DNA of 37,659 bases, taken from the IMG/VR virus record IMGVR_UViG_3300037628_000290, positions 1-37,659 of that record; one strand, written 5' to 3'. Both the position numbers and the translations under genes were made by a program. Below, piece after piece: positions 7,702-37,498 of the stretch. Positions within the stretch are counted from its first letter, which is position 1. Each line of letters opens with the position of its first letter. The notes under the pieces were generated by a model. The model worked only from the letters and a program-made list of their open reading frames with translations. It was not told the origin of the DNA and searched no databases. The stretch comes from a virus.

Positions 7702-7923
7702 ACGATGTGCATTATCTTTGGATATATCAGAAAGTATTAATTGAATATGATCAATGAAGTCATTAGTCCCCTTTTGGATTTCATCAATTCTCTTGTCTTC
7801 AAGATTGTATGACAACCTTAGCTCATTGATATGTCCGGCATTGATAAAGTGAAGCGGGCCAAGACCAATAAGTACCACTAGTAAAACTACGTGCTTTTTA
7901 ATAAAATTTAATACTATATTCAT
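7693..7923 (-). CDS. single-span membrane protein, possible spanin or holin
   Basis: 76 aa from ATG 7923, chosen because AAAGGA precedes it; an upstream ATG at 7971 has no ribosome site. One hydrophobic segment (about 11-28, VVLLVVLIGLGPLHF) follows a short basic N-terminus, then about 45 polar, helical residues. This is the topology of an inner-membrane spanin (N-in, C-out), though it is short, and it could also be a one-span holin. It directly follows the lysozyme in the late operon, so a lysis role is likely. No lipoprotein partner is visible. Confidence 0.65.
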   Translation of the reverse strand: MNIVLNFIKKHVVLLVVLIGLGPLHFINAGHINELRLSYNLEDKRIDEIQKGTNDFIDHIQLILSDISKDNAHRLA

Positions 7924-7976
7924 GTCTTCCTTTAATAATATTTCCCTGTCGTTTTCGTCCAATTTAAACATATCAA

Positions 7977-8411
7977 TTAGTCTTTTAAGCTTACTGAGTC
8001 TTTGAGCTTGTCTACAAGGTCTCTCATCCTTCGCGGATGAGTTCTAGCGAACCTGGAGTCTAGCATTTCACGTATAGTCTTTGTAATATTATTTTCATCA
8101 ATTGCTGCAAGCATCTTCTTGAACCGCAGCAACTTAGTTATACCAAGAGCAAAGACCATGTCGAGCAATACAGTCTGCATTGGAGCAGAAAGAATCTGGA
8201 AGTCTTTGACGTTTCTATTTAACTCCGAAGAGAATCTATCAATATCATTGCTTAATAACATCAATGCTTCTCTCTTGTTGATTCCGCATTCCTCTATGTT
8301 CCTGCCATATCCAATAGTAAGCTTACCAGCTGTACATTTATAGGGCATAATACGCAAGCCCTCATGCTCCATGATTAGCTTTGTAGCTTCTTTTTTGGAT
8401 ATGTTTTTCAT
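7977..8411 (-). CDS. T4-type lysozyme (GH24 endolysin)
   Basis: 144 aa. It begins with the GH24 core: helix IMEHEGLR with catalytic Glu17, then YKCTAGKLTIGYGRNI. The triad spacing Glu-8-X-5-Thr is Glu17, position 26 and Thr32, but position 26 is Cys where T4 lysozyme has Asp20; the D/C alternative is known in the family. It cleaves the glycan strands of peptidoglycan at the end of infection. No signal peptide or SAR segment is present, so a holin is needed for release. It overlaps the tail-fibre stop (TAATG). The length is normal for a globular GH24 enzyme. Confidence 0.9.
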   Translation of the reverse strand: MKNISKKEATKLIMEHEGLRIMPYKCTAGKLTIGYGRNIEECGINKREALMLLSNDIDRFSSELNRNVKDFQILSAPMQTVLLDMVFALGITKLLRFKKMLAAIDENNITKTIREMLDSRFARTHPRRMRDLVDKLKDSVSLKD

Positions 8412-18691: not shown

Positions 18692-19163
18692 CAGAAACCT
18701 CCTTTAGGTGTCCCCACGATTTCCCTCTCTTAATGTCACTAATGGTTTGATGCCTTACGCCATATCGCTCAGCAACTATTCTATGAAGCTCATCTGATGC
18801 CAATATCTCCAGCACTTGCTCTTCTGTTAGCTTGGCTCCCGGGCCTTTTTCGCCTCTTTGATCTTGGCAGCGTCCTGCTTCTACCATTTCTCTGCTGTTA
18901 TCAGCGTTTGTTCCCAGATGTAAATGCAGCGGGTTTACACATAGTCTGTTGTGACACTCATGGAGCACAAGCAGACCCTCGGGAATTTTTCCAACGAAAG
19001 CCTGATACGACATTCTGTGAACTAAATTCTGTTTGTTATTCCACCAGATTTGTCCGTAGCCACCGCCATCAAGACCATTTTGCCAATTCCAGCACTTAGT
19101 AACTTCATTGATCTCGGCGTTATCTATGATTTTTCTTTGTAGTTTAGTTTTGTTCATGGCCAT
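18684..19163 (-). CDS. HNH endonuclease with C-terminal HTH (free-standing homing type)
   Basis: 159 aa. A W-rich N-terminal strand (CWNWQNG...GYGQIWW) is followed by the HNH/zinc segment HRMSYQAFVGKIPEGLLVLHECHNRLCVNPLHLHLGTNADN (about 49-89), with His50-region and LHEC/CVNP ligands. A C-terminal helix-turn-helix (KLTEEQVLEILAS...RYGVRHQTISDIKRGK, about 110-148) probably reads the target. It is clearly paralogous to the HNH gene at 28985. It sits between two ejection-protein genes, without its own promoter, and its last codons contain the ribosome site of the next gene. Typical selfish nuclease inserted into a late operon. Confidence 0.9.
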   Translation of the reverse strand: MAMNKTKLQRKIIDNAEINEVTKCWNWQNGLDGGGYGQIWWNNKQNLVHRMSYQAFVGKIPEGLLVLHECHNRLCVNPLHLHLGTNADNSREMVEAGRCQDQRGEKGPGAKLTEEQVLEILASDELHRIVAERYGVRHQTISDIKRGKSWGHLKEVSDA

Positions 19164-23957: not shown

Positions 23958-24779
23958 TTATGTATAGCTAACTTCAACGATACCGGTGTTGTCGATAGCG
24001 ACAGCAGTACCCTTGAACATTGTGTTTACGAACCAGGAAGCATAATCAGCTAGATATTGCATATCAGCCCTGATATCCATTCCAACCGCAAAGCCCATGG
24101 CGTTTTTAGCCCATGCATATGCTTTACCAGCTGTTAGGCCGCCCTCAGCATTGGATGGGATAACTATCCAGTTATAGCCCATGACCTTTCTTCCATCTAA
24201 ACGACCGTCACCCAACAACATATTGTTCGTGTATCGTGAGTTGATGAATTTGTCATCATTTAAGATATCCTCTTCACCCTCGGCAGTTAAGATTACAAAT
24301 CTGTCTTCCGCTCTTGTTACACCAAGGTCAGAGAAGATTTTGTTCATAGATAAGAATTTGGCATAGTCAAAACCAGTACCACCGGCTGCAACAATATTAC
24401 CAGTACCAGAAGCTGCAACCGCATCAATTATGATCTGATCACATCTACGTCCGATAGCCATTGCGCCCATTTTTGCTAACTGTTGACGTTCCTCAAAGTT
24501 AACTTCCCTTTGCTTAAAGATGTCAGACATATCAGCAGCATCCCAGTCCTGCATAGTTGCAGTAACGGGAGTGTAGTCGATGTCCATCAATGGGATTTTA
24601 TTCTGTGGAACATGAAGGCTAGCCATGCCTTTGCTCACTTTCTGAAATCTAACCTGTGATCCAACGACGTTGGATTTTGTATAACAAGTGTTTCTGAGAA
24701 GGAAGCCTTCTGACTGATAAACAGCCTTAACCATTGCGTCAAATTCAATTACCGCAAGGTTTGGAAGATTAATTGACAT
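23958..24779 (-). CDS. major capsid protein
   Basis: 273 aa. It is short for an HK97-fold capsid protein but has that pattern: an N-arm, VVGSQVRFQKVSKGMASLHVPQNKIPLMDIDYTPVTATMQDWDAADMSDIF (E-loop and spine region), a central helix (LAKMGAMAIGRRCDQIIIDAVAAS), and a C-terminal A-domain with FVILTAEGEEDILNDDKF and VMGYNWIVIPSNAEG. It lies one small gene after the scaffold and before the head fibre. AAAGGAG precedes the ATG. It has its own promoter and a structured leader of about 190 nt, fitting the need for many copies. Capsid call from pattern and order. Confidence 0.88.
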   Translation of the reverse strand: MSINLPNLAVIEFDAMVKAVYQSEGFLLRNTCYTKSNVVGSQVRFQKVSKGMASLHVPQNKIPLMDIDYTPVTATMQDWDAADMSDIFKQREVNFEERQQLAKMGAMAIGRRCDQIIIDAVAASGTGNIVAAGGTGFDYAKFLSMNKIFSDLGVTRAEDRFVILTAEGEEDILNDDKFINSRYTNNMLLGDGRLDGRKVMGYNWIVIPSNAEGGLTAGKAYAWAKNAMGFAVGMDIRADMQYLADYASWFVNTMFKGTAVAIDNTGIVEVSYT

Positions 24780-25007: not shown

Positions 25008-25187
25008 TTATTCTTTGGCTACTTCTTTTTTCAGGAAATCAATAAGGGTACTGTCTTTTCCCTCACCCTCTTCGAGTGTATCTAGATATTCCTTAATAGT
25101 TTCTTTGGTAAATGAAAGTTCAGTCTCACCAATATCACTGAACAACTTATTCAGCTTTAAATACTTTTCATATGTGAATCCGCCCAT
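25008..25187 (-). CDS. small hypothetical protein between scaffold and capsid
   Basis: 59 aa, helical and acidic (FTYEKYLKLNKLFSDIGETE...IDFLKKEVAKE). Its ATG lies two bases after the scaffold stop, and GAGAGGGG at the scaffold end serves as ribosome site. No membrane segment or known motif. Order suggests a capsid assembly accessory or minor head protein, but nothing in the sequence proves that. Confidence 0.65.
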   Translation of the reverse strand: MGGFTYEKYLKLNKLFSDIGETELSFTKETIKEYLDTLEEGEGKDSTLIDFLKKEVAKE

Positions 25188-27130: not shown

Positions 27131-28735
27131 TTACTGCTGCTGTTGCTGCTGCTGTTGCTGCTGTTCGCCAGGGAGCGGAACGCCAGATATACCAGGAGCT
27201 TGCTGAGCTTGTAGAGCACCTTGTGCCGCCTCTGCTGCCTTCTGATGATCTGCTTGAACTTCGGCATCTGTTTTTACGATGCTAAGAGGAGTTCCGGTCT
27301 TTTCAGCAATCCATGATGGTAATTTATCAATGTGAATACTGTTCTGCGTGAACTCTGGACCGCCAGTACCATTCATCAACTCAAGGAATTGTTGGTAGCT
27401 TTCGAGTTCTGTATTGCTTTGAGCCTGAGAGAGAGGAGAAGTATATTGTAAGTCCACAATTTTCCCATCGATTGCAAAATTTTTGGGAAGTAAACGGCCG
27501 AACAATCCCTGCTTTTGTAAGACATAAACTATTCTCCTTGAAAGTCTTGGTAGGAATTCAACTTGAAGACGGCCAATAGCAGGCCCTATTTGCTCAAGTA
27601 ATACTTGTTTTTTATATATAGTTTCAGTTGCAGTCTGCGGAGGAGCATCAACAGGACGCAATATATCGGCGTACATTATCTTTAATACTTGTTCTCTTAA
27701 ATCACTCAGCACAAGCTGTGTAAATTGAGCATCTGATGCTGTTGGTAATTGCTGAAGCGGGGGCGCACCTCCGGGCAGGCCACCAACTTCTATAACCTTT
27801 CCAGGCTCAGGGTCGAACTTATTTGCATTAAAGACGTTATCACTGAACGCAAGCCACATAGGTCCAGCTTTAAATGCAGCCGATCGTAATTCATCTGCAG
27901 CCATAGCATTAATCGTCTTGAGTGTGGCTCGTGCAAATATTGCAGGACCCACTCCAAGCGTCTGACCAGGACGTTTCATCCATCTAAATGCTATCCACGG
28001 ACTAGATGGCGACCAGCTATCAAGAACTACATGCTTAGTAGCTTCTTCGATGACGATATATCTGTACTTATTTACTTTTTCTTTTGGATAAAATATTGAA
28101 GCCTCAAGCAGATTTGCCTTAACATTGGGATCGTTTCCATAAGAACGCTTTAGCTCGCCGCTCATCTTACCCGTAGGCCACAAAACTTCTATGTCTCGTA
28201 CTGGTATTTGCTCATAGTCATGAAAGACAGTACTAAGTATTCCATAGCTATCCTCTTCAAAGTACATCTTCGATATGGGATACGATCGGAATATTAAAGG
28301 ATGATCATCATCATATGTAACATATAAAGCAGCAGTCCCTACAGCTAAATCAAAATAAGCCTCACCACTAGCCGATGCAAAGTTTGATCCGTTTAAGTAC
28401 TTAAAGAATATCTCTGTAATTTCTTCGAGTTCTTCGTTTATACCGTCACGCTCTTCTTCGGGAACAAGCATACCAGCAGTAAGTTTTTGCCAGTTTTGAT
28501 ATGAAGGAGTTAATGACGATTGAAGTTTTGCAGTAAATGCAACAGTTGCAGATACTCCAACAGAATCAAAGATATCCTCACCCCTAACATTTCCTTCCCA
28601 GTCACGTCTGTAACTAGAGCGCTCTGGTTGGGTCACATTGTAAGCATCTTCGTATAAAGACCACCACGAAAGGGCGCGATCCCTAGCTTGATCTCTGCGC
28701 TTAATTACGCACTCAACTGATTTTGACTCAGGCAT
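27131..28735 (-). CDS. head-to-tail connector (portal) protein
   Basis: 534 aa, matching the podovirus head-tail connector family: the N-terminal RDQARDRALSWWSLYEDAYNVTQPER, DIFDSVGVSATVAFTAKLQSSLTP, the FDLAVGTAALYV segment, KRPGQTLGVGPAIFARATLKTINAMAADELRSAA and ETIYKKQVLLEQIGPAIGRLQVEFLPRLSRRI. It forms the dodecameric portal through which terminase packages DNA and to which tubular A binds. It ends in ten consecutive Gln, a DNA triplet repeat. The start follows a small gene by 2 bp. Confidence 0.95.
   Translation of the reverse strand: MPESKSVECVIKRRDQARDRALSWWSLYEDAYNVTQPERSSYRRDWEGNVRGEDIFDSVGVSATVAFTAKLQSSLTPSYQNWQKLTAGMLVPEEERDGINEELEEITEIFFKYLNGSNFASASGEAYFDLAVGTAALYVTYDDDHPLIFRSYPISKMYFEEDSYGILSTVFHDYEQIPVRDIEVLWPTGKMSGELKRSYGNDPNVKANLLEASIFYPKEKVNKYRYIVIEEATKHVVLDSWSPSSPWIAFRWMKRPGQTLGVGPAIFARATLKTINAMAADELRSAAFKAGPMWLAFSDNVFNANKFDPEPGKVIEVGGLPGGAPPLQQLPTASDAQFTQLVLSDLREQVLKIMYADILRPVDAPPQTATETIYKKQVLLEQIGPAIGRLQVEFLPRLSRRIVYVLQKQGLFGRLLPKNFAIDGKIVDLQYTSPLSQAQSNTELESYQQFLELMNGTGGPEFTQNSIHIDKLPSWIAEKTGTPLSIVKTDAEVQADHQKAAEAAQGALQAQQAPGISGVPLPGEQQQQQQQQQQ
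27134..27163 (-). repeat. CAG/CAA triplet repeat (polyGln at portal C-terminus)
   Basis: Ten Gln codons immediately before the portal stop: eight CAG with two CAA. Such runs slip easily, so the tail length may vary among phage isolates. Confidence 0.85.
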
Positions 28736-28902: not shown

Positions 28903-28942
28903 AATCTGCGTCCTTGCAATAATTAATTAAATAGGACTACTA

Positions 28943-28959
28943 ACCACACGTGGTATAAT
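28943..28959 (+). promoter_or_regulatory. extended -10 promoter with overlapping dyad
   Basis: TGG-TATAAT (28951-28959) is an extended -10 for the HNH gene at 28985; no -35 is evident. A perfect dyad ACCAC-ac-GTGGT (28943-28954) overlaps its upstream edge, so a regulator could block it. Confidence 0.6.
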
Positions 28960-28984
28960 AGCCCTACTAAAGTGAGGTTCAATT

Positions 28985-29449
28985 ATGTCTAATGATGCGC
29001 TGAAAAGCAAAATACTATTAAATGTGGAAAAAGATCCTGATCCAGACGGGTGTTGGCTGTGGCAGGGGTATTGCAATAAGAATGGCTATGGTCAGATTTG
29101 GTGGGAAGGTAAACAGCATTTAACTCACCGCATGTCGTATCAAGCCTTTATTGGTGATATTCCTGAGAGTATCTTCGTGCTTCATTGGTGCGATGTACGT
29201 AAGTGCTGCAACCCCAAACATCTATTTCTTGGGACACAGACTGACAATATAAGAGATAGGGTCAACAAAGGGCGCTGCAAAGGGGGAGAAAATAAAGGTG
29301 AAAAACATGGGCGCGCTAAGCTAACCAAAGAACAAGTACTTAAGATACTAGCATCCAATGAAAAGCAAAAAACACTTGCTGAACGATATTGCGTAGACCC
29401 ATCCACTATTAGTATGATTAAAACAGGGAAAAATTGGAAACATTTATGA
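28985..29449 (+). CDS. HNH endonuclease with C-terminal HTH
   Basis: 154 aa, paralogue of the HNH protein at 18684. The same order applies: W-rich strand (CWLWQGYCNKNGYGQIWW, 23-40), HRMSYQAFIGDIPE, LHWCDVRKCCNPKHLFLGTQTDN (66-88, Cys/His metal ligands) and helix-turn-helix KLTKEQVLKILAS...RYCVDPSTISMIKTGK (112-149). It lies on the plus strand between two leftward gene blocks, with its own promoter. The stop overlaps the next micro-ORF by ATGA. Probably a mobile nuclease; it may also mark the island for spread. Confidence 0.9.
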   Translation: MSNDALKSKILLNVEKDPDPDGCWLWQGYCNKNGYGQIWWEGKQHLTHRMSYQAFIGDIPESIFVLHWCDVRKCCNPKHLFLGTQTDNIRDRVNKGRCKGGENKGEKHGRAKLTKEQVLKILASNEKQKTLAERYCVDPSTISMIKTGKNWKHL

Positions 29450-29514
29450 TTGCCTTTTTATTGATCCTCATGTTTATAATAATTCTTTATTTTAATACGG
29501 ACGGAGACGAATAA
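29446..29514 (+). CDS. hydrophobic Ile/Leu-rich micro-ORF
   Basis: 22 aa: a single hydrophobic stretch rich in Ile, Leu and Phe followed by NTDGDE. ATG overlaps the HNH stop (ATGA), and its end contains the GGAG site used by the next gene's TTG. It may be a tiny membrane peptide or a leader that couples translation of the downstream gene. The opposite island has an Ile-rich ORF in the same place. Confidence 0.45.
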   Translation: MIAFLLILMFIIILYFNTDGDE

Positions 29515-29515
29515 A

Positions 29516-29842
29516 TTGAACAGAGCGCTGAACTTTTGGCTTTCGCTAATTGCAAAATCCTTACTATTTATAGCAACATCTATACTGGCAGTAGCAGTAT
29601 TTGCCCTGATGTCTGTTGGCAATCTCGTTGGTGCGATATTGTTTGGAATGTTTGCGATATTTGCGGCAGCAATACAATCGCCAAAGGATAAATTAATAAC
29701 ACCCCCAGGTAGCGACCACATGCGCACTTCGTCACCTTCGTATTATTGTGATAGTGGCAAGCCACCGCTCGCTGGTATCGTCGAGCAATCATCTTCGTCA
29801 GAAGAAGTTGAAGAAGTACCTAGTCCGCCTACGCTCACTTAA
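29516..29842 (+). CDS. two-span membrane protein with disordered Ser/Glu/Pro tail
   Basis: 108 aa, starting at TTG 29516 (GGAG 9 nt upstream; no in-frame ATG nearby). Two hydrophobic segments (about 14-35 and 36-52, LLFIATSILAVAVFAL and VGAILFGMFAIFAAA) precede a tail rich in Ser, Pro and Glu (SSSSEEVEEVPSPP). Same design as 36277 and 36698. It ends 8 bp inside the opposing gene. No family recognised; small two-span phage proteins include superinfection-exclusion factors and holins, so either is possible. Confidence 0.65.
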   Translation: MNRALNFWLSLIAKSLLFIATSILAVAVFALMSVGNLVGAILFGMFAIFAAAIQSPKDKLITPPGSDHMRTSSPSYYCDSGKPPLAGIVEQSSSSEEVEEVPSPPTLT

Positions 29843-30272
29843 TTATCTTTACTGCTTTGATTCCATGCTTAGCTCTTCCTCTTGCGTCTAGATTCAGTAG
29901 CTTTCGATAGAGGCCGAAAGGGGTGATACACCAAACCTTGAGTGCCATACAATAAAGCACCAAGTTCACACACGACGGTATATAATATTTGTGCTTTTTG
30001 CTTCTTTTATCATCTAATTCTACCCTCAGAATTCTATATGGTTTCTTTAGATGGTCGAAGACTCGCATGTATCTCTGCATGGGATCATCAGTATTGAGCA
30101 AGGGGAGGATAGTAATGTTCAGGAGGGCGGTTCCTGGGTCGATCTCGATGAAGTTATGTTCATCTCCTGTTACTAAAAAGAGATGGGAGAAACCATACTT
30201 TAGTAAATGTCGCTTCCAGCCGTGACCGCTGGTGAAGAATATGTAATAGCAATTGTAGTTAAAGTTTCTCAT
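29835..30272 (-). CDS. hypothetical protein, possible permuted NlpC/P60-like fold
   Basis: 145 aa. Text pattern: FSHLFLVTGDEHNFIEIDP (His30, then acidic residues 43-45) followed by a helix opening with Cys101 in PSCVNLVLYCMAL and ITPFGLYRKLL. A His before an acidic strand, with the nucleophile Cys later at a helix start, recalls permuted papain-like (LRAT/NlpC-P60) proteins, and CV-x-x-V...TP-x-x-LY is seen in phage proteins of that kind. The assignment is tentative. It is the last gene of the leftward early block. Confidence 0.62.
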   Translation of the reverse strand: MRNFNYNCYYIFFTSGHGWKRHLLKYGFSHLFLVTGDEHNFIEIDPGTALLNITILPLLNTDDPMQRYMRVFDHLKKPYRILRVELDDKRSKKHKYYIPSCVNLVLYCMALKVWCITPFGLYRKLLNLDARGRAKHGIKAVKIIK

Positions 30273-30420
30273 TGCTTATCTTTAGGAGAAATACTATGTC
30301 TTCGTCATTAAAGTGTTTGTCTGCTGGCACTTCATCGATAAAGAAATACTGCTTGCGTGACTTGGCTACAGCCTTGAGCCTGAGCTCGCCCACTATCTTT
30401 TCAAGGCTGCGGCGGTTCAT
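30259..30420 (-). CDS. small hypothetical protein
   Basis: 53 aa. Basic N-terminus (MNRRSLEKIVGELRLKAVAKSRKQ) then an acidic beta/helix segment (YFFIDEVPADKHFNDEDIVFLLKI). It overlaps the upstream gene by 20 nt and the downstream gene by 14 nt, as expected for a real packed phage gene. No family recognised. Confidence 0.6.
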   Translation of the reverse strand: MNRRSLEKIVGELRLKAVAKSRKQYFFIDEVPADKHFNDEDIVFLLKISNEKL

Positions 30421-30682
30421 CGTCTTTCGCCCACAATTTGTACCTTTCTATTTCAGCCTCAGACTTTAATGATGCAGCTCTGTCTTCTTGTGTGACACCA
30501 TAAGAAACAATCCCATACACCACAAAAGCTATTATTAAGACTACAAAAACCCCAAAGGCATAACCTACAAGATGCAGAATAAAATAGTACTTGGCAAATA
30601 TCGCACAGCCACCCTTCTGGCCAATAGTTGACGACAACCAGGCAATTGTTTCTTTTGAAAGTAAAGCCTGATCTAAACTCAT
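30401..30682 (-). CDS. small membrane protein
   Basis: 93 aa. A soluble N-terminus (about 1-28) precedes a long hydrophobic stretch (about 32-62, IFAKYYFILHLVGYAFGVFVVLIIAFVVYGIV, one long or two short helices), then a charged helix and a PPQP end. ATGA-coupled to the gene upstream. No family recognised; it could be a holin-type or envelope-modifying protein. Confidence 0.65.
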   Translation of the reverse strand: MSLDQALLSKETIAWLSSTIGQKGGCAIFAKYYFILHLVGYAFGVFVVLIIAFVVYGIVSYGVTQEDRAASLKSEAEIERYKLWAKDDEPPQP

Positions 30683-30996
30683 CTTTTAACCTGAACATGC
30701 GGTGTTTCATAGCACCTGGTCTTAAGACACTTAACTACTCCAATCTTTTCAATTCTATACTTCGCATGCTCCGGAAGAAACAGGTACCACCCCATTCCAA
30801 TAATCATAGCTATCACAGCAATCATTACCCCTATCTTTGCAATTTCTTTCACTATACGGAGTGTGATCCCAAGAACTACAAGGAACCCAACAAATAAAGC
30901 TGCAATTCCAAGTCCTGTGAATACAGTTAATAACTTTGCCCAGTCCCACGCCCAACTGCTGACAATTTGTAACCGCTTAAACTTCTGATACATCAT
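30679..30996 (-). CDS. small membrane protein
   Basis: 105 aa. GAGGAG lies 7 nt before ATG 30996. Two strongly hydrophobic segments (about 23-47 and 54-73) follow an amphipathic N-terminus, with a basic C-terminus (YRIEKIGVVKCLKTRCYETP). No family recognised. Part of a run of coupled genes whose junctions share the AAGAAAGATGA sequence. Confidence 0.65.
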   Translation of the reverse strand: MMYQKFKRLQIVSSWAWDWAKLLTVFTGLGIAALFVGFLVVLGITLRIVKEIAKIGVMIAVIAMIIGMGWYLFLPEHAKYRIEKIGVVKCLKTRCYETPHVQVKR

Positions 30997-31288
30997 CTTT
31001 CTTCTCCTCAGCAGAAATCACTCTGTGTCCCGTCTTCATTATGGTAAACTCTTCAAAGGCTTCCCGGTGTACGGTTATATCAACTAGCGGCTTACCTTCC
31101 ACATGATAAGTAAATATATCATCCTCGTTCATGCCCTCAACAAGATTCCAGCCAATATAGCCTTTTAATATCTGCCTGCATTGATATGCTAAAAAGTCCG
31201 ATACGCCGTCAGTTCTACCACCCAAAGCAAAAGCCTCAGCTATCTTTCTGTTTTTTTCTTCGGCCATCTTTCTTTCTTCCTCAGTCAT
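30977..31288 (-). CDS. hypothetical protein
   Basis: 103 aa from ATG 31288, which overlaps the upstream stop (GATGACTGAG); ATG 31309 has no ribosome site. The N-terminal charged helix (EEERKMAEEKNRKIAEAF) is followed by a compact domain and a tail ending KKDDVSEV. No family recognised. Confidence 0.62.
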   Translation of the reverse strand: MTEEERKMAEEKNRKIAEAFALGGRTDGVSDFLAYQCRQILKGYIGWNLVEGMNEDDIFTYHVEGKPLVDITVHREAFEEFTIMKTGHRVISAEEKKDDVSEV

Positions 31289-31433
31289 CTTTCTTATTCC
31301 TAATTTCATTTAATTCAGTCTGACAGTCTTCGAGAATCTTAAGTTCAAAGCTATCCAAAAAGTTAGGCATGGCGATTGTTATAGCAAAGTTAATATTAGC
31401 AATCTCTTCAACTAGCGCTTCCTCCCTAGTCAT
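31281..31433 (-). CDS. small hypothetical protein
   Basis: 50 aa, acidic and helical (EEALVEEIANINFAITIAM...FELKILEDCQTELNEIRNKKDD). Both ends overlap neighbours through the recurring GATGACT junction. Too short for a family call, but the coupling supports it as a gene. Confidence 0.58.
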   Translation of the reverse strand: MTREEALVEEIANINFAITIAMPNFLDSFELKILEDCQTELNEIRNKKDD

Positions 31434-31617
31434 CTTTCTTTACCTCGGCAATCCAGCCACGCATACAATCTGTGTTCTCTCGTATATCTTTGAGCTTATA
31501 TTCAATTTCCCGCGTCGAATCCTCTATGTAACTCACAAGCTCTTTAATGTAAGCAATTATCTCTCTATGCCTCATTAAATCAACGATCTCTCTATGTTCT
31601 ATCTTGCAATCACTCAT
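31426..31617 (-). CDS. small hypothetical protein
   Basis: 63 aa, a helical charged protein (EIVDLMRHREIIAYIKELVSYIEDSTREIEYKLKDIRE) probably forming a coiled coil. GGAAAG precedes the ATG. It ends KKDD like its downstream neighbour, with the same GATGACT overlap. No family recognised. Confidence 0.6.
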   Translation of the reverse strand: MSDCKIEHREIVDLMRHREIIAYIKELVSYIEDSTREIEYKLKDIRENTDCMRGWIAEVKKDD

Positions 31618-31932
31618 TTAGCTTTCCATTATCCTATCGCTCTCTTCTTCGTATCTCTTATGCACTTCTTTTGTCCAATAACACATGTCTTCTTCAAAAC
31701 TATCTGGCTCAACAACAAAATCACTAGGCTTTTTAGTCTCTGCTATTCTTGGCCAAACTGGATGACATAATGATTCAACTGCCCAACGCTTAAACCTTTT
31801 ATCACTGTTCTTAAAATAACCTCTGTCATCATCAGTTAAAAACTTCTCCCAGATTTCTGTTGATGATTCCTTATCTTCTACAACCCTTCTAATTCCTTCA
31901 TTTACATTTTCTCTATCATAGACATCAGACAT
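31618..31932 (-). CDS. hypothetical protein
   Basis: 104 aa, acidic with many Trp and Arg (EIWEKFLTDDDRGYF, RFKRWAVESLCHPVWPRIAE). Helical prediction, no membrane span. GAGGAGG lies before the ATG inside the preceding gene. No family recognised. Confidence 0.62.
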   Translation of the reverse strand: MSDVYDRENVNEGIRRVVEDKESSTEIWEKFLTDDDRGYFKNSDKRFKRWAVESLCHPVWPRIAETKKPSDFVVEPDSFEEDMCYWTKEVHKRYEEESDRIMES

Positions 31933-32230
31933 CTAATACTTCCTCCTCTAATAACTCCGCTATCTTTTTAGAATCTAATAACTCATCTAACTTCTTAAAT
32001 AAGAATTCTTCTACTGAATCTAGTACAACAATTCCAGCTGTCCATAACTCTAGCTGCTCTTTGTTATCATCATTCCCGGGGGCTGCACAACATGCTTTTG
32101 TAGCTTCTTTTTCATAGTGCATCAGGCTGAAAATAGTAGCTACCGCTTGTATTTCCGGACTATCAGTACTGCTAACTTTCAATGTAGCACCGTCTCTATA
32201 AATTTCTGCAGTCTTAACCTCTGTATTCAT
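31925..32230 (-). CDS. hypothetical protein
   Basis: 101 aa. The N-terminus (KTAEIYRDGATLKVSST) looks like a beta hairpin; the rest is helical and acidic, ending EEEVLDV. Coupled to the upstream gene by ATGA and to the downstream gene by 8 nt. No family recognised. Confidence 0.62.
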   Translation of the reverse strand: MNTEVKTAEIYRDGATLKVSSTDSPEIQAVATIFSLMHYEKEATKACCAAPGNDDNKEQLELWTAGIVVLDSVEEFLFKKLDELLDSKKIAELLEEEVLDV

Positions 32231-32613
32231 GACAAAGCCTTTACTTTAAACTTCATCATCACTTCATCATCCTCAAGATCAGTCAATGTAACAGTCTGCT
32301 CACCACACTCATGATCCCAATCTTCATCTATATCCTCAGTACCAAATGTATCCTGACGTAAGCGTATAGTTTCATGTATATCATCAACAAATTCAGTAAA
32401 TGCCCCGTCCAGCAAGTCACTCCATTCATCTGCATTTCTTGAACCATAAGGAATCTTGATGTCTATTCGCATGTTTAAGTCTTGTATTGACTCATCATCA
32501 TCGTCATCATCGTCCAAATTATCTACACCTAGTCTTCGTAATACCTCTTTTACAAGCGTAGCGTCTTTTACAAAGCCTTCGATTAACTTTAGTTCTTCTT
32601 TGCTAATTTTCAT
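32227..32613 (-). CDS. hypothetical acidic protein
   Basis: 128 aa with a run of seven Asp (about 33-39) and an overall strong negative charge. The N-terminus (KISKEELKLIEGFVKDATLVKEVLRRL) is a helix. Very acidic small early proteins sometimes mimic DNA, but nothing specific supports that here. ATGA overlap with both neighbours. Confidence 0.62.
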   Translation of the reverse strand: MKISKEELKLIEGFVKDATLVKEVLRRLGVDNLDDDDDDDESIQDLNMRIDIKIPYGSRNADEWSDLLDGAFTEFVDDIHETIRLRQDTFGTEDIDEDWDHECGEQTVTLTDLEDDEVMMKFKVKALS

Positions 32614-33044
32614 TTCACTTCTCCAATTGTTTCTAAATCCATACCCTTACTATCTAAAAATGCCTTAATAATATTATTATCAAACTTTCTCCTACTGGCC
32701 GTAAATGCCTTGCTTCCTTTGTCTGTCCCTAAGTCCCAGACAAATCCTTCTCTTTTCCACTTAGCACAATCACATTCAAATTCCTGTATGATTTCTTTTG
32801 ACAATCTCACCCATTCCTTGCCCTTAACTACCTTAGTCTTACCATCATCTGCATCATAAAATACGTTGTATTCACCCGCTAACTTCATTTGAATGCTTTT
32901 TAATAATTCATATGTAGGAAAAAGCTCATGCAATATTCCAGGTTGCTTTAATTCCGGACAAACATCGAACATATAAAATATAACCTGCTTTATATCATAG
33001 ATATTTTCTGCAATGCTCTCTAGAACATCAGTTTTTTTGCTCAT
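32610..33044 (-). CDS. hypothetical protein
   Basis: 144 aa, mixed helix and strand, with CDCAKWKREGFVWDLGTDKGSKAF as its most distinctive text. No metal-site or nuclease motif is evident. Preceded by a two-span micro-protein gene. No family recognised. Confidence 0.62.
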   Translation of the reverse strand: MSKKTDVLESIAENIYDIKQVIFYMFDVCPELKQPGILHELFPTYELLKSIQMKLAGEYNVFYDADDGKTKVVKGKEWVRLSKEIIQEFECDCAKWKREGFVWDLGTDKGSKAFTASRRKFDNNIIKAFLDSKGMDLETIGEVK

Positions 33045-33047
33045 TAA

Positions 33048-33218
33048 CTACACCTTATCTGAATCAATAACAATTTGGGAAATAATACATCCAATTACAA
33101 AGCCAATTACTCCGTCTATCCACATAGAATGATCAGGATAAAAATACGTCATCAGTAACGACAAGCCAACTACTATCGGAGCAATGAATAATAAGGACTT
33201 AACAAATGACCAAATCAT
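33048..33218 (-). CDS. two-span membrane micro-protein, holin candidate
   Basis: 56 aa. AGAGG lies 7 nt before the ATG. Two hydrophobic helices (about 4-25 and 35-51) are joined by a short polar loop (YFYPDHSMWID) and end in ISQIVIDSDKV. Size and hairpin topology match class II holins, but it sits in the early block far from the lysozyme. Confidence 0.6.
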   Translation of the reverse strand: MIWSFVKSLLFIAPIVVGLSLLMTYFYPDHSMWIDGVIGFVIGCIISQIVIDSDKV

Positions 33219-33231
33219 GACTTACCTCTAA

Positions 33232-33543
33232 CTAATCCGGTTGCTGTACTGATAATGTTAACCCAATAAATAAACGTGGCTCTGTTCTCTTGCAGCTACT
33301 AACAAAATAGTCCGGAACCATGGATTGATGCTCTCTTCCATCCATATACTCTAATACATGTAGTGTTTCGCTCATGTAATATGCACTAAAATTAACAGCA
33401 TGCAGGTACTTGTTAAAGATAGTCCACCGCTGCTCTTTGGTTAATGACGCAGCCTTAAACCCAATCTTTCTCGCCAGTCCGTCCATGTCATATACTATCT
33501 TGTCTAACTCATCTATTAGTTCTTCAGTTAAATCATCACTCAT
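33232..33543 (-). CDS. hypothetical protein
   Basis: 103 aa. Helical N-terminus (DDLTEELIDELDKIVYDMDGLARKIGF), then a Tyr/His-rich part, then a beta end. It overlaps the upstream gene by 8 nt. No family recognised. Confidence 0.62.
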   Translation of the reverse strand: MSDDLTEELIDELDKIVYDMDGLARKIGFKAASLTKEQRWTIFNKYLHAVNFSAYYMSETLHVLEYMDGREHQSMVPDYFVSSCKRTEPRLFIGLTLSVQQPD

Positions 33544-33895
33544 CGCCTTTCTCCTCTATTTTCCTTAGATAACTTTTTTTCTTAACCCCTGTCTTTTTCT
33601 TAATACCATCTTCCCATCTTCTGTGAGCATCAGAATAATCAATGTTAAAAGCAGAATGGGATGGGTTTAAATGCGTGCGTGAATTCCACCCCCAGTTATC
33701 AAATCTCTTTGCAATATCCATTAATGCATTAATAACCCAAGTTAAATCAGAACATTCCTCATTCTTCAACACACGTTTATCAATAGCTTTATGGAATGTG
33801 CTAATAGCCATGCCAAGATCACTCCTCATTTTATCAAGCTCTTCCGGCTTAACGTCTAATGATTCTATAGTTACTATTGCATCTTCTTTGTCCAT
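33536..33895 (-). CDS. hypothetical protein
   Basis: 119 aa from ATG 33895, three bases after the upstream stop with GGTGA before it. The middle (ECSDLTWVINALMDIAKRFDNWGWNSRTHLNPSHSAFNIDYSDAHRRW) is conserved-looking, with Trp, His and Asn clusters; the C-terminus is very basic (KKKTGVKKKSYLRK). No family recognised. The basic end could bind nucleic acid. Confidence 0.6.
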   Translation of the reverse strand: MDKEDAIVTIESLDVKPEELDKMRSDLGMAISTFHKAIDKRVLKNEECSDLTWVINALMDIAKRFDNWGWNSRTHLNPSHSAFNIDYSDAHRRWEDGIKKKTGVKKKSYLRKIEEKGDE

Positions 33896-33898
33896 CAA

Positions 33899-34021
33899 TC
33901 ACCAACTGTCATATGTAAGCCAAAACCCTATGCCTAAAATTACTATCAATATAAGTAATCCAATGCCACCAAGTATTAGCTTGGTTAAAATATAGTATTT
34001 AAAGAACGTAAAGAATGTCAT
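33899..34021 (-). CDS. single-span membrane micro-protein
   Basis: 40 aa with one hydrophobic helix (about 12-35, LTKLILGGIGLLILIVILGIG) after an aromatic N-terminus (FFTFFKYY). ATGA overlap with the gene upstream. Function unknown. Confidence 0.55.
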   Translation of the reverse strand: MTFFTFFKYYILTKLILGGIGLLILIVILGIGFWLTYDSW

Positions 34022-34221
34022 TCCTCACTTAAGTCCTTGCCCCAATCTTCAAGCATCACTTGACACGCTGCAACGATGACCCAACACATTGGAATAGCCA
34101 ATAGACCACCCCAATTACCAGCAATCAACCATGCTCCATACAACAGCCCCAAGCAGCCAAGAAATATTACCAACGTAGTAAACATCAATGTGAGCTTTGT
34201 CTTTGTTATATTTGTCATCAT
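34018..34221 (-). CDS. two-span membrane micro-protein, holin candidate
   Basis: 67 aa. Two hydrophobic segments (about 11-33 and 37-56) and a charged end (DWGKDLSEE). GGAGG stands just upstream, inside the previous gene. Two adjacent ATG are possible starts. Topology fits a class II holin or an envelope-modifying protein. Confidence 0.62.
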   Translation of the reverse strand: MMTNITKTKLTLMFTTLVIFLGCLGLLYGAWLIAGNWGGLLAIPMCWVIVAACQVMLEDWGKDLSEE

Positions 34222-34415
34222 TCCTCCAACACCTTATCTAATCTTTTAACCAAGTCATCAAGCTCTATATCTATTCTTCCAAGCCAAACTGTCTTTATCT
34301 TACAGTCAACTTCAGCGCCCATAGGCTCATGACCCAATGCCACTGCAATAAAGCTGCGCGTCAAATCTAATGTTCCTATCACTTTTTTAAGATCATCACG
34401 AGTAAACATAAGCAT
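34218..34415 (-). CDS. small hypothetical protein
   Basis: 65 aa, amphipathic helical with WLGRIDIELDDLVKRLDKVLEE at the C-terminus. GAGGGA lies 8 nt before the ATG. No family recognised. The 81-bp gap upstream contains only a weak leftward promoter-like TTGGCA and an AT-rich stretch near 34450-34480. Confidence 0.6.
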   Translation of the reverse strand: MLMFTRDDLKKVIGTLDLTRSFIAVALGHEPMGAEVDCKIKTVWLGRIDIELDDLVKRLDKVLEE

Positions 34416-34496
34416 CTTCTTTGTCCCTCAGTCATTTTGTGTTATATATATTGTATCTCGTCTGCCAAGTGTAGAAAGAGTATTCGAGGTCGCATC

Positions 34497-34724
34497 TTAT
34501 GTGGCCTTAGCTATCTCTAACTTAAGACTCAGACTTACCGTTCTATCGCCCATTATTAGGTCTACTAGTTCGGCCTCACCATCTTCTATTAATATTTTAA
34601 TCAACCTATCTGTAGTTATAGTTGCAATCATACTTTCTAACTGAAACTTCATTGCAGCCATACCAACTTCTTCCTTTAATCCTGAACTCAGTATTAAATC
34701 AATAAGTGTATCTTTGACACTCAT
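34497..34724 (-). CDS. small hypothetical protein
   Basis: 75 aa, helical (KDTLIDLILSSGLKEEVGMAAMKFQLESMIATI). Start overlaps the upstream stop (TGATG), and GGAG precedes it. No family recognised. Coupled to the DUF5681 gene. Confidence 0.62.
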   Translation of the reverse strand: MSVKDTLIDLILSSGLKEEVGMAAMKFQLESMIATITTDRLIKILIEDGEAELVDLIMGDRTVSLSLKLEIAKAT

Positions 34725-35260
34725 CAGCTCTCCAACATCTTCTTGATGTTCTCTATTTCTTTCTTGAACTCGCTGAATTCACATATTTCTTGTGTAGATT
34801 TGATTCCAGCAAGTAACTCCTTGCCTTCCATGGGGGTTAATTGGCCGTCATCCATAGCCTTCATGACATTGTACGCCTGTTCATCCAATGTACCTACTAA
34901 TAATCCCTTCGGTGCTGGATTATCCTTGATCCTAGCCGGTAACACTCGCTCCATAATGAGTCTGATTATGCCTTCATCTCCATTAAGAGCCATCTCAATA
35001 GCTTTCTTAGTTATTCCAGAATAAGCCTCGTTTAACTTCTTGACGCACTCAACACGTTCTTTAGAGTTCCATATGCTAGCACCATTCGGATTACCACTGT
35101 GACCCTTCGTCCACCTGCCGTCCTTTTCTCTAACTACTTTCTTCTCATCATGAACAATTATATCTTGCTCAGACTGTTCTTTTTTTTTACTGTTCATTGA
35201 TTCTTTCTTGTCTGCTGGATCGTCAGAACAACGAAGCTTCTGAAGTAATTCCTTAGTCAT
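34724..35260 (-). CDS. DUF5681-domain protein, possible small terminase
   Basis: 178 aa. A basic/acidic lead-in is followed by GRWTKGHSGNPNGA (about 48-61), the DUF5681 signature (FxxGxSGNPxGRP type). Then come helices with KLNEAYSGITKKAIEMALNGDEGIIRLIMERVLPAR, also typical of the family. Such proteins often lie near terminase genes and are candidates for a DNA-recognition small subunit, but the role is not proven. Here it is about 28 kb from the large subunit. The start overlaps the VRR-NUC stop (GATGACTAA). Confidence 0.75.
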   Translation of the reverse strand: MTKELLQKLRCSDDPADKKESMNSKKKEQSEQDIIVHDEKKVVREKDGRWTKGHSGNPNGASIWNSKERVECVKKLNEAYSGITKKAIEMALNGDEGIIRLIMERVLPARIKDNPAPKGLLVGTLDEQAYNVMKAMDDGQLTPMEGKELLAGIKSTQEICEFSEFKKEIENIKKMLES

Positions 35261-35639
35261 CGTGACTTTCCGTTAATGTTCGAGAACGCTCTTTAACTTC
35301 TCTATCAACAACTTTAATAGCATCATCACATCCTTTACATACGTAGCATTTATAACCATATGACTCCAATTTATCCATAATGAATCTTTGTTTCTCAGTT
35401 GCATAAGACTCTTTAACGCGTTTCATCTCTATATACATAAACAATGATGGAAAGAATAGGTCAGGAATACCTGAAATCATACCCTCTGCCTTCATTCTAG
35501 CAGCAAACTTACCTGGTCGTTGACCCATATTTGTACTTGAATAGTAAAACAACAGCGGATGTCTCATGTGTAGATACTTAATGAAGTTAACTTGTTCTAC
35601 AGATTCCTTGGGGATCAGGGGTGCGTTTAGTTGTTTCAT
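35253..35639 (-). CDS. VRR-NUC domain nuclease
   Basis: 128 aa from ATG 35639; a longer frame from 35732 would read through promoter-like DNA and adds hydrophobic, unlikely text. The VRR-NUC core is clear: helix SVEQVNFIKYL, MGQRPGKFAARMKAEGMISGIPDLFFP (G-x-PD at about 57-60) and MYIEMKR (Glu71, Lys73), then a conserved QRFIMDKLESYGYKCYVCKGCDDAI end. Phage VRR-NUC proteins are stand-alone nucleases, possibly Holliday-junction or flap resolving. First gene of the leftward early block. -10-like TATAAT sits 7 nt before the ATG. Confidence 0.85.
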   Translation of the reverse strand: MKQLNAPLIPKESVEQVNFIKYLHMRHPLLFYYSSTNMGQRPGKFAARMKAEGMISGIPDLFFPSLFMYIEMKRVKESYATEKQRFIMDKLESYGYKCYVCKGCDDAIKVVDREVKERSRTLTESHDD

Positions 35640-35645
35640 AGCTCT

Positions 35646-35651
35646 ATTATA
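35646..35651 (-). promoter_or_regulatory. -10 box for leftward early block
   Basis: TATAAT on the minus strand (35651-35646) lies just before the VRR-NUC ATG at 35639. No good -35 is seen. Transcription from it would start at or near the ATG, giving a leaderless message, so the site or the start may be different. Confidence 0.35.
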
Positions 35652-35760
35652 TAGAAAAAGCAGACAAAAAAAATAGACATGATTGTGAATCGGATACCAC
35701 TCTGAAATACAACCACGTCTACTAAATAACAACCATTGGATGTATTGATTGTCATATCTT

Positions 35761-35769
35761 TGATATAAT
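35761..35769 (+). promoter_or_regulatory. extended -10 promoter for HNH island
   Basis: TGA-TATAAT (35761-35769), extended -10, no clear -35. The bases after it (TAGCCTA) resemble those after the promoter of the other HNH island (AGCCCTA). Confidence 0.6.
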
Positions 35770-35803
35770 TAGCCTATCACAAATAACTATATCGGAGTCC
35801 ATT

Positions 35804-36052
35804 ATGTCAAGAAAGCCAATCAATTTCAATGGGATTAAATATTACTATATGAAACCTTATTACCGTAGCCAGTGGCGGTCAGGGATTAAGTCAACATCGC
35901 TACACCGAGCTATATGGGTTCATCACCACGGAGAGATACCAAATGGTATGCTTATCCATCACATAGATCATGACAGGGTAAACAACGACATCTCAAACTT
36001 ACAGATGATGACCCCAAGAGAACACACCATACATCATAAGGGTAATCCTTGA
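35804..36052 (+). CDS. small HNH endonuclease (HNH_3 type)
   Basis: 82 aa. The HNH_3 core is LHRAIWVHHHGEIPNGMLIHHIDHDRVNNDISNLQMMTPREH (about 33-74), with HHIDHD as first motif, N-N-DISNL in the middle and REH at the end. No separate DNA-binding domain is present. CGGAG lies 7 nt before the ATG. It has its own extended -10 promoter and lies on the plus strand against the leftward block. Unlike the other two HNH proteins it belongs to the small intron/free-standing type. Confidence 0.9.
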   Translation: MSRKPINFNGIKYYYMKPYYRSQWRSGIKSTSLHRAIWVHHHGEIPNGMLIHHIDHDRVNNDISNLQMMTPREHTIHHKGNP

Positions 36053-36076
36053 CTTTTCTGCTAGAGGTGTTACTAT
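36049..36076 (+). promoter_or_regulatory. possible internal promoter
   Basis: TTGACT (36049-36054), a 16-bp spacer and TACTAT with a TG extension (36068-36076). It is good in form, but it would start transcription inside the following short ORF. Either it drives a leader RNA without that ORF's start, or the HNH transcript reads through. Confidence 0.45.
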
Positions 36077-36179
36077 GATGTTACAAGTCAAGAATAAAAA
36101 CAAACAAACAGACCCACCTGAGGCGCAAACGAGGGTGATAATAATAAGAAGATCGACAATAATAATAATAAATTTATAG
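36075..36179 (+). CDS. Ile-rich leader peptide candidate
   Basis: 34 aa from ATG 36075, with AGAGG 7 nt upstream. The C-terminal part is encoded by three ATA, two AGA, TCG, ACA and four ATA codons, giving RVIIIRRSTIIIINL. The stop (36177-36179) abuts the first segment of a four-segment pairing element with a U-tract. This is the layout of an attenuation leader peptide. It might instead be a tiny membrane peptide, comparable to the micro-ORF at 29446. Confidence 0.5.
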   Translation: MMLQVKNKNKQTDPPEAQTRVIIIRRSTIIIINL

Positions 36180-36250
36180 AGGAAGTGGGAAACCAACTTC
36201 AACCGAAGCCGAAAGGTGAGGGCGAGGTGGGAAAAGCTTCCTTTTTTTTT
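36180..36250 (+). promoter_or_regulatory. attenuator-like leader with U9 terminator
   Basis: Four complementary segments lie in order: 1 GAAG (36182-36185), 2 CUUC (36197-36200), 3 GAAGC (36205-36209), 4 GCUUC (36236-36240). 1:2 forms GAAGUGG-GAAA-CC(A)ACUUC with a GNRA loop. 2:3 forms CUUC-aacc-GAAG. 3:4 forms GAAGC/GCUUC and precedes nine U (36242-36250). A second CC-GAAA-GG hairpin lies between 3 and 4. The alternatives exclude each other. It precedes the membrane protein gene at 36277. Confidence 0.55.
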
Positions 36251-36276
36251 AAATTTTAACCATTGGAGCACACATT

Positions 36277-36630
36277 ATGAAACTTTCAATTAAACTTAAA
36301 TTACTTACAGCTGCAGCAGCGGCTCTATCGTGGACAATGATTGGCATTGGGTTCTTATTCCCTCCAGTCGCCATACCGTTTTTTGTTATCTCCTTTTTCT
36401 TTGGACTATTAACAATATTCGGAGCAGTTGATTTAGCTCGTTTACCAACAGATAAACTAACCGTTAATGATTTCCCACATCATGATAATGATAGCGATGA
36501 TCAAGCCACATTGAATGAACCATTGTTAACAGCAGAGCCATCAAGACTGCTTAGTTACGGTGAGGAAGCCGATGAACTTAGTGAACCTAATGAACTTGAT
36601 TATGAGGAAGTATATAGACTATACAACTAA
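36277..36630 (+). CDS. two-span membrane protein with acidic tail
   Basis: 117 aa. GGAG lies 8 nt before the ATG. Two hydrophobic segments (about 9-29 and 30-51, ALSWTMIGIGFLFPP and IPFFVISFFFGLLTIFGAV) are followed by about 60 residues rich in Asp, Glu, Leu and Pro (NDFPHHDNDSDDQ...EEADELSEPNELDYEEVYRLYN). Same design as 29516 and 36698. A terminator follows at 36645. Superinfection exclusion or another membrane function is possible; no family recognised. Confidence 0.68.
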   Translation: MKLSIKLKLLTAAAAALSWTMIGIGFLFPPVAIPFFVISFFFGLLTIFGAVDLARLPTDKLTVNDFPHHDNDSDDQATLNEPLLTAEPSRLLSYGEEADELSEPNELDYEEVYRLYN

Positions 36631-36644
36631 ACCAATCACTAACC

Positions 36645-36672
36645 AAGGGGCTTAATCGCCCCTTTTCTTTTA
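36645..36672 (+). terminator. rho-independent terminator
   Basis: AAGGGGC (36645-36651), loop UUAAUC, GCCCCUU (36658-36664), then U-rich UUCUUUUAUUU. Seven perfect pairs. It separates the two membrane protein genes, so the second may need its own promoter or readthrough. Confidence 0.85.
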
Positions 36673-36697
36673 TTTAAACTAACTGGAGTACTTAACT

Positions 36698-37075
36698 ATG
36701 AACTTTCTAGAACTTATAAACCAAGCACTAAAGATATCGTTTTTAGTATTTTTAGCAGCATGTCTTGCATCTTTATTCACTGCAGCACTTGTAGTCTCAG
36801 GCACCATTAGCTGGCCATTCTTTGTAGCACCAGCATTAGTATCATTTGTAACAATGATATTTAATCTATTCGCTCAAGATTATCTTGATCGTCATGCACC
36901 ACCTCTGCCAGTAATAATGGCACCACCAGCGGTAACAACTGACTCATCAGTATCATCATCGAGTGATGAACCAAGCAGCTCCGCTACGGAATCCAAAAAG
37001 AATGAATCATCACACAGTTTTGATCATGCTGAATTCTTCATAGACATCCCTAAGAACAATTCTAACAGTCGATAG
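36698..37075 (+). CDS. two-span membrane protein with Ser-rich tail
   Basis: 125 aa. GGAG is 9 nt before the ATG. Two hydrophobic segments (about 11-33 and 37-58, FLVFLAACLASLFTAALVV and FFVAPALVSFVTMIFNLF) precede a tail with SSVSSSSDEPSSSATESKKNESS. Third member of the two-span/disordered-tail group. It ends before a long convergent terminator. No family recognised. Confidence 0.68.
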   Translation: MNFLELINQALKISFLVFLAACLASLFTAALVVSGTISWPFFVAPALVSFVTMIFNLFAQDYLDRHAPPLPVIMAPPAVTTDSSVSSSSDEPSSSATESKKNESSHSFDHAEFFIDIPKNNSNSR

Positions 37076-37089
37076 TCTAAAACCTATCT

Positions 37090-37141
37090 AAAGGTACCAA
37101 GAAGAGTTAAAAACCTCACAAGGAGGCTCTTAGGTACCTTT
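37090..37141. terminator. bidirectional terminator hairpin
   Basis: AAAGGTACC (37090-37098) pairs perfectly with GGTACCTTT (37133-37141); inside are AAGAG/CTCTT and CCTC/GAGG. U-runs follow on the right and A-runs precede on the left, so it can stop the rightward island and the leftward gene that ends at 37130. Confidence 0.8.
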
Positions 37142-37498
37142 ATCTTTAAGCTTAGCATCTTCAATCAACGTGAGCATTACACCAGGAATATATTTATATC
37201 TATCATGTTCCATATATCTACCATCCTCAATAAGATCAAGCAATGTCATATAGAAGAATATCTTAAACTTACGTTCACCAAGGTAGTTAAAGTTTTTCTT
37301 GCACTCATAGAATGTTTTCTTTAATAGGTATTGGTGCAAATCAGCCCTAACTTTAATAGCAGGACTGATGAAATCAGCAATAATATCATCGGCATCTAGA
37401 TTACAATGTGGATTAAGTTGAAGTCGCTCATACTCCTCAAAATTTATCTCCAAGCCAAGGTAATCCCAAGCACACCATTTAGTTTCTTTATCAGTCAT
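37130..37498 (-). CDS. hypothetical protein
   Basis: 122 aa from ATG 37498, preceded by GAGGATATGAAA (ATG 37504 is too near the site). A helical protein with WCAWDYLGLEINFEEYERLQLNPHCNLDADDIIADF at the N-terminus and a Phe/Tyr-rich centre. It is the only leftward gene right of the second island. No family recognised. Confidence 0.62.
   Translation of the reverse strand: MTDKETKWCAWDYLGLEINFEEYERLQLNPHCNLDADDIIADFISPAIKVRADLHQYLLKKTFYECKKNFNYLGERKFKIFFYMTLLDLIEDGRYMEHDRYKYIPGVMLTLIEDAKLKDKGT

What the first reader, a model, noticed from the sequence alone, without database searches (positions are those of the whole stretch)
28943..37075. Two islands with the same plan: promoter, HNH, Ile-rich micro-ORF, two-span tail protein
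Islands 28943-29842 and 35761-37075 both lie on the plus strand against leftward blocks. Each starts with an extended -10 promoter (TGN-TATAAT followed by AGCC-CTA-like bases) and an HNH endonuclease, then a short Ile-rich ORF, then one or two proteins with two hydrophobic spans and a disordered acidic/Ser tail. The HNH families differ, so this is not a simple duplication. It looks like a recurrent moron-type cassette in which a homing nuclease carries a membrane-acting cargo, maybe superinfection exclusion.
Basis: partly seen in the sequence, partly recalled or inferred. Interest (0 to 1): 0.82.

Follow-up and report, generated by a model that had tools for sequence, protein, structure and literature searches.

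The report
Orphan membrane proteins beside phage nucleases
A bacterial virus genome carries two small backward-facing gene islands, each with a DNA-cutting enzyme next to orphan proteins that probably sit in the bacterial membrane, but the pairing was not seen in the related viruses compared here, so it looks like a local collection of accessory genes rather than a travelling cassette.

Summary
Both plus-strand islands exist, each led by an exact extended -10 promoter and an HNH_3 nuclease, and all three long-tailed two-span proteins of the genome lie in them (A 29516-29842, B 36277-36630, C 36698-37075). The "same plan" is only partly right. Island 1 is a tight operon. In island 2 a strong terminator-like hairpin separates the nuclease from B, and a second one separates B from C. 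The second nuclease is 82 aa, against a median of 211 aa in its family. The two "Ile-rich micro-ORFs" are unlike each other. The recurrent-cassette reading failed its own test: 0 of 80 nearest IMG/VR relatives of the first nuclease and 0 of 75 of the second have such a gene downstream. The core-gene relatives examined lack it too. A, B and C have no recognisable homologue in the libraries searched. Best reading: lineage-specific accessory (moron-like) loci with host-type promoters, whose products are inner-membrane hairpins with acidic/Ser cytoplasmic tails, perhaps superinfection exclusion or host takeover (inferred). The nucleases are separate guests. Odd and unexplained: a Ser4-acidic cluster occurs in three window proteins but in 1 of 1737 comparison ORFs.

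The parts
28951..28959 (+). exact extended -10 TGGTATAAT, promoter of island 1 (no good -35)
28985..29449 (+). HNH1, 154 aa, HNH_3 domain plus C-terminal HTH-like end; free-standing homing-endonuclease type
   Evidence: PF13392 E 1.5e-9; phrog_1872 and phrog_59; 46-47% to T7-group phage HNHs
29446..29514 (+). 22-aa micro-ORF, one hydrophobic span with acidic end, start overlaps HNH1 stop (ATGA)
29516..29842 (+). protein A, 108 aa, TTG start, two spans, 55-aa tail with SSSSEEVEE
   Evidence: no homologue
35761..35769 (+). exact extended -10 TGATATAAT, promoter of island 2
35804..36052 (+). HNH2, 82 aa, HNH_3 domain only; lacks the C-terminal module of its relatives
   Evidence: PF13392 E 2e-15; relatives' median 211 aa
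36075..36179 (+). 34-aa leader-like ORF with two runs of ATA (Ile) codons; may or may not be translated
36178..36252 (+). branched hairpin plus U9, terminator-like; alternative pairing CCCACCT 36113-36119 with AGGTGGG 36225-36231 possible
36277..36630 (+). protein B, 117 aa, two spans, 70-aa acidic tail (net -14)
   Evidence: no homologue
36645..36664 (+). intrinsic terminator between B and C
36698..37075 (+). protein C, 125 aa, two spans, 67-aa Ser-rich tail with SSSSDE
   Evidence: no homologue
37078..37145 (.). hairpin with AAAGGTACC/GGTACCTTT stem, probable two-way terminator at the end of island 2
   Evidence: z -3.99

Best explanation
Two lineage-specific accessory loci of a podovirus lie at gaps beside its leftward gene blocks. 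Shown: each is read rightward, starts with an extended -10 promoter of host sigma-70 type, and holds an HNH_3 gene and one or two orphan proteins with a hydrophobic hairpin and a long polar, acidic or Ser-rich tail. Inferred: host RNA polymerase transcribes them on its own schedule (no RNA polymerase gene was recognised in the genome). The hairpin proteins sit in the inner membrane with both ends in the cytoplasm and change the infected cell's envelope, most likely excluding other phages or serving host takeover. The nucleases are independent homing guests, HNH2 probably a shortened remnant, that share the insertion spots rather than carry the membrane genes. In island 2, B and C are reached only by transcription that reads through, or is released from, the hairpins before them.
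For: Promoters and placement. Nuclease identity. All three long-tailed two-span ORFs of 61 window ORFs lie in the islands (hypergeometric 0.0003, post hoc). Terminators. No linkage of nuclease and cargo elsewhere. HNH1 paralogue without cargo. HNH2 short. Positive or neutral N-termini and short uncharged loops fit ends-in topology.
Against: No homologue, so function is guessed from anatomy only. Both islands hold HNH next to two-span genes, which the independent-guest view must call coincidence or shared preference for the site. The codon-usage test does not separate A and C from an antisense frame. No island lacks a nuclease, and no empty site was found because relatives are too distant.
Confidence: 0.5

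Rival explanations
1. One reading: homing-nuclease cassettes that carry membrane cargo between phages.
For: Two of two plus-strand islands hold HNH upstream of two-span genes; island 1 is translationally coupled. HEG islands with cargo are proposed in print (PMC10448857, abstract and passages), there with HEGs on both sides of essential genes.
Against: 0 of 80 and 0 of 75 nuclease relatives have such cargo; HNH1's paralogue has none; terminator between HNH2 and B; HNH2 lacks its C-terminal module.
Confidence: 0.12
2. A, B and C are class II type holins or antiholins or lysis regulators placed away from the endolysin.
For: Two spans with both ends in the cytoplasm is the class II holin layout (an 88-aa two-TMD N-in-C-in holin-like protein is described in PMC13056207, abstract start seen). 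No holin was identified in the window by family search.
Against: Endolysin 7977-8411 (PF00959) already has a one-span neighbour at 7693-7971; the tails are long and acidic; three copies far from the lysis genes; no PHROG holin hit.
Confidence: 0.2
3. A, B and C are effectors meant for a eukaryotic cell that houses the bacterium (Inc-like hairpin plus acidic/Ser tail), carried by a phage of an intracellular bacterium.
For: Hairpin with short loop and long tail; SSSS[DE] clusters in 3 window proteins against 1 of 1737 comparison ORFs, with mixed TCN and AGY codons; an insignificant E 3.9 match of A to a Wolbachia TomO hydrophobic domain model.
Against: Host unknown; the primase is nearest to phages of free-living Gammaproteobacteria at 34%; no secretion signal or homologue; the cluster pattern was chosen after seeing the tails.
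Confidence: 0.07
4. The reading frame of A (and perhaps C) is not real; the DNA is antisense or untranslated.
For: The antisense frame scores as high or higher by codon usage; A starts with TTG and an 89-aa antisense ORF overlaps it.
Against: A has a GGAG site and follows the micro-ORF by one base; C's antisense frame is not open along the gene; the same hairpin-plus-tail layout occurs three times; Ser clusters use different codons.
Confidence: 0.06

Closest known systems
Free-standing HNH_3 homing endonucleases of T7-group and other phages (phrog_1872, phrog_59)
   Same: HNH1 is 46-47% identical over nearly its whole length to HNHs between genes of T7-like phages
   Different: Known ones seen here lie mostly in the same direction as their neighbours with ordinary phage genes next; in the window HNH1 faces against both neighbouring blocks. 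An HNH facing against both neighbours does occur, e.g. Salmonella phage PhiSTP1 between portal and terminase
HEG islands (PMC10448857)
   Same: homing nucleases next to cargo genes, proposed to move together
   Different: there HEGs flank essential genes on both sides with high DNA identity between phages; here one HEG per island, orphan cargo, no second copy found
Morons with superinfection-exclusion membrane proteins (recalled as a kind)
   Same: own promoter, contrary strand, terminator, small membrane product
   Different: no sequence relation found; island 1 has no terminator seen; function untested
Class II holins
   Same: two spans, probable N-in C-in
   Different: long acidic/Ser tails, not in a lysis cassette, no family match

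Membership tests
Free-standing HNH_3 homing endonuclease | HNH_3 domain above the curated cut-off | tested here: met
   37.7 and 56.6 bits against 24.8
Free-standing HNH_3 homing endonuclease | DNA-binding module beside the HNH domain | tested here: inconclusive
   HNH1 aligns over its length with relatives and has a weak HTH match below cut-off; HNH2 lacks the module its relatives have
Free-standing HNH_3 homing endonuclease | cuts and copies itself into an empty site | not testable with these tools
   no relative close enough to show an empty site
Moron | own promoter | tested here: met
   exact extended -10 sites 28951 and 35761 in the right place; consensus only
Moron | own terminator | tested here: inconclusive
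   island 2 yes; island 1 none listed by the scan
Moron | absent from relatives at the same place | tested here: inconclusive
   two-span genes not found in 12 capsid and 36 portal relatives, but these are distant relatives (portal 21-31%, capsid 35-41%) and mostly fragments
HEG cassette with membrane cargo | nuclease and two-span gene co-occur in other genomes | tested here: not met
   0 of 80 and 0 of 75 located of 80
Class II holin | two spans with both ends inside | tested here: inconclusive
   hydropathy and charge only
Class II holin | holin family match or place in a lysis cassette | tested here: not met
   no match; endolysin is at 7977-8411
Superinfection-exclusion protein | blocks a second phage | not testable with these tools
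   no known family matched

The most novel reading that the evidence does not exclude
This podovirus infects a bacterium that lives inside or on eukaryotic cells. It encodes a small set of orphan, host-facing proteins (hairpin membrane proteins A, B and C plus the disordered protein at 4992-5507), of which A, C and the disordered protein carry Ser4-acidic clusters made to be read by eukaryotic kinases, with B's output set by a conditional terminator. That would be a lytic-type phage carrying Inc-like effectors.
Probability: 0.05. Interest if true: 0.85.

Novelty: new member of a known kind. Interest (0 to 1): 0.3.

Why it matters
If A, B and C act on the host membrane they are a new, unclassified group of phage accessory proteins, and the two islands give compact units to clone and test. 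If the nucleases really carried them it would extend the HEG-island idea to dispensable cargo, but the comparison here speaks against that. The Ser-acidic tails and the hairpin before B are the parts that remain unexplained.

Tried and rejected
Family searches of A, B and C in Pfam, PHROGs, NCBIfam and PADLOC gave nothing above cut-off. The PADLOC 2TM-effector match of C (E 2) and the PspM match (E 0.012, 15.6 bits against a cut-off of 80) were set aside as hydrophobic chance. tblastn of all three in 50,697 phage records gave no real hit; only B was tried on plasmids. The single IMG/VR hit for A (L003) overlaps a 536-aa terminase-like ORF and was dropped as chance.

Common descent of A, B and C was tested by region-preserving shuffles. 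A-B was reached by 13 of 300, B-C by 10 of 300, A-C by 117 of 300: suggestive, not shown. A profile of the three found nothing in 36 plus 12 relative records; the tool itself notes that an empty answer without a positive control shows little.

The idea of Ile-codon attenuation before B was weakened because ATA is common here (150 of 396 Ile codons in 14 genes). Alternative pairing of the leader exists, but the whole leader is not unusually stable (z -1.13), and there is no alignment to test covariation. Rfam gave no match at gathering level and only chance-level ones at E above 1. A CTACTAA repeat around the island 1 promoter (9 in the window, 4 of 100 shuffles as many) was not pursued. Host finding by capsid and primase in genome contigs found nothing.

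Limits of the counts: relatives were the best 80 of 350 and the best 80 of 309. ORFs were called mechanically. In the six named relatives 1 of 314 mechanical ORFs would pass the later two-span-tail rule (L054 28566-28865, 26-aa tail, opposite to annotated genes). In the HNH1 set 1 of 822 passed (L092, opposite strand, upstream of the nuclease). Five of 80 HNH2 loci were dropped because the nuclease ORF was not found. The ten named-phage HNH regions were judged by annotation only. SSSS[DE] and the promoter-placement rule were chosen after seeing the window.
Full report
What the window is. The 37,659-base record is a viral contig (G000) with podovirus genes: portal (27131-28735, phrog_332), tail protein (19691-21724, phrog_376), internal virion protein (12050-14590, phrog_684), major capsid (23958-24779, PF19821), ERF, SSB, Gp157, Toprim primase, and a phage lysozyme (PF00959) at 7977-8411. 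By protein it is far from everything named: portal at most 29% in 50,697 phages and 31% in IMG/VR, capsid at most 41%, terminase 39%. Megablast of 14001-37659 finds no phage. The primase is nearest to gammaproteobacterial phages (34%), a weak hint at the host.

The islands. Between leftward genes, two stretches read rightward. Island 1 is HNH1 (28985-29449), a 22-aa hydrophobic micro-ORF whose ATG overlaps the HNH stop, and A (TTG, 29516-29842) one base after the micro-ORF's stop. Island 2 is HNH2 (35804-36052), a leader-like 34-aa ORF (36075-36179), B (36277-36630) and C (36698-37075). Each island starts with an exact TGNTATAAT. The third and last such site of the window precedes the tail-fibre gene (12041, minus), so the element is this phage's ordinary promoter type and not a mark of a cassette. 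Neither island promoter appears in the two-hexamer scan, which fits extended -10 promoters without a good -35.

Where the plan differs. In island 2 the DNA between HNH2 and B folds into a branched hairpin of about 75 nt with nine U (z -3.13, 1 of 200 shuffles as good), and between B and C there is a plain terminator (z -3.50); the end carries a third strong hairpin (z -3.99). The gaps left before B (about 25 nt) and C (about 33 nt) are too short for a separate promoter, so B and C need readthrough or a promoter further up; this is inference. Folding of growing transcripts shows a different structure (CCCACCT with AGGTGGG) before the last arm is made, which is what an attenuator would do, but the evidence is one sequence.

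The nucleases. HNH1 is 55% identical to a third HNH of the same genome (18684-19163, minus, among tail genes), which has no membrane gene beside it. It is 46-47% identical to HNHs between genes of T7-group phages. HNH2 belongs to another group and stops after the HNH core, while relatives run on for another 100 aa or so; among 75 IMG/VR relatives the median is 211 aa and the minimum 90.

I took the 80 best IMG/VR relatives of HNH1 (of 350) and of HNH2 (of 309) and looked for an ORF starting within 600 (HNH1) or 800 (HNH2) bases after the nuclease with two hydrophobic spans and a soluble tail of 25 aa or more. Results: 0 of 80 (76 with 600 bases downstream) and 0 of 75 located (69 with 600 bases). 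The nuclease faced against both neighbours in 6 of 69 and 1 of 16 judgeable loci, so contrary orientation is uncommon but known; PhiSTP1 is a named case. None of 12 capsid-gene relatives or 36 portal-gene relatives matched a profile of A, B and C. Five of the former, read in full, hold 168 mechanical ORFs and none of the tail type. HNH_3 rings in 2 of those 12 records, inside a 304-aa ORF in the one read.

The membrane proteins. A, B and C are the only ORFs of 61 in the window with two spans and a tail of 50 aa or more. The loops are 2-8 residues and uncharged. The N-termini carry +2, +3 and 0. The tails carry -4, -14 and -5 net charge. This fits a hairpin with both ends inside. Similarity among the three is suggestive only. 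AlphaFold on A with the other two rows gave one long helix at pLDDT 65.6 and a disordered tail. No library or collection gave a homologue.

An oddity. SSSS followed by D or E (or SSS followed by two acids) occurs in A, in C and in the unrelated disordered protein at 4941-5507, against 1 of 1737 ORFs (353,741 aa) from the other loci then held. The Ser codons mix TCN and AGY in C and in the disordered protein and vary within TCN in A, so this is not a DNA repeat. It is the acceptor pattern that eukaryotic CK2 likes (recalled), which is the ground for the novel case, but the pattern was chosen after seeing it, and acidic Ser-rich disorder has duller explanations.

Verdict. Real, mostly as described, but the common plan is looser than claimed and it is not recurrent in the sequences reached. 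I read it as moron-like accessory loci of one poorly sampled phage lineage with orphan membrane proteins of unknown target, plus guest nucleases. Shown: positions, promoters by consensus, nuclease families, hairpin-and-tail layout by hydropathy, terminator-like hairpins, lack of linkage elsewhere. Inferred: host polymerase transcription, topology, function. Literature seen: PMC10448857 (abstract and passages), PMC4324299 (one passage on an Inc transmembrane hairpin), PMC13056207 (start of abstract in a listing). Searches for print on homing nuclease plus moron plus superinfection exclusion, and on small two-span exclusion proteins, gave nothing directly on this arrangement in their listings.

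Noticed in passing
25008-25187 (-): 59-aa ORF just upstream of the major capsid gene repeats a capsid motif (12 of 20 identical to capsid residues 136-155, E 2e-7 for the single comparison); looks like a fragment of a capsid duplicate.
   Followed up: partly
4941-5507 (+), likely start 4992: Disordered Ser/Pro/acidic protein with an SSSSE cluster and no family match, between replication genes.
   Followed up: partly
18684-19163 (-): Third HNH_3, 55% identical to HNH1 and 67% in DNA over 343 bases, among tail genes and in their direction.
   Followed up: yes
36113-36252 (+): Leader before B can form two exclusive structures, one a terminator; possible attenuator.
   Followed up: partly
10412-11223 (-): Three 143-nt repeats, 69-71% alike, inside the 1196-aa tail-fibre gene.
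   Followed up: no
29835-30272 (-): 145-aa protein converging on A and overlapping its end by 8 bases; no match above cut-off in Pfam, PHROGs or phages.
   Followed up: no
28937-28970 (+): CTACTAA twice around the island 1 promoter and once (35719) upstream of the island 2 promoter; 9 in the window, 4 of 100 shuffles reach that.
   Followed up: no
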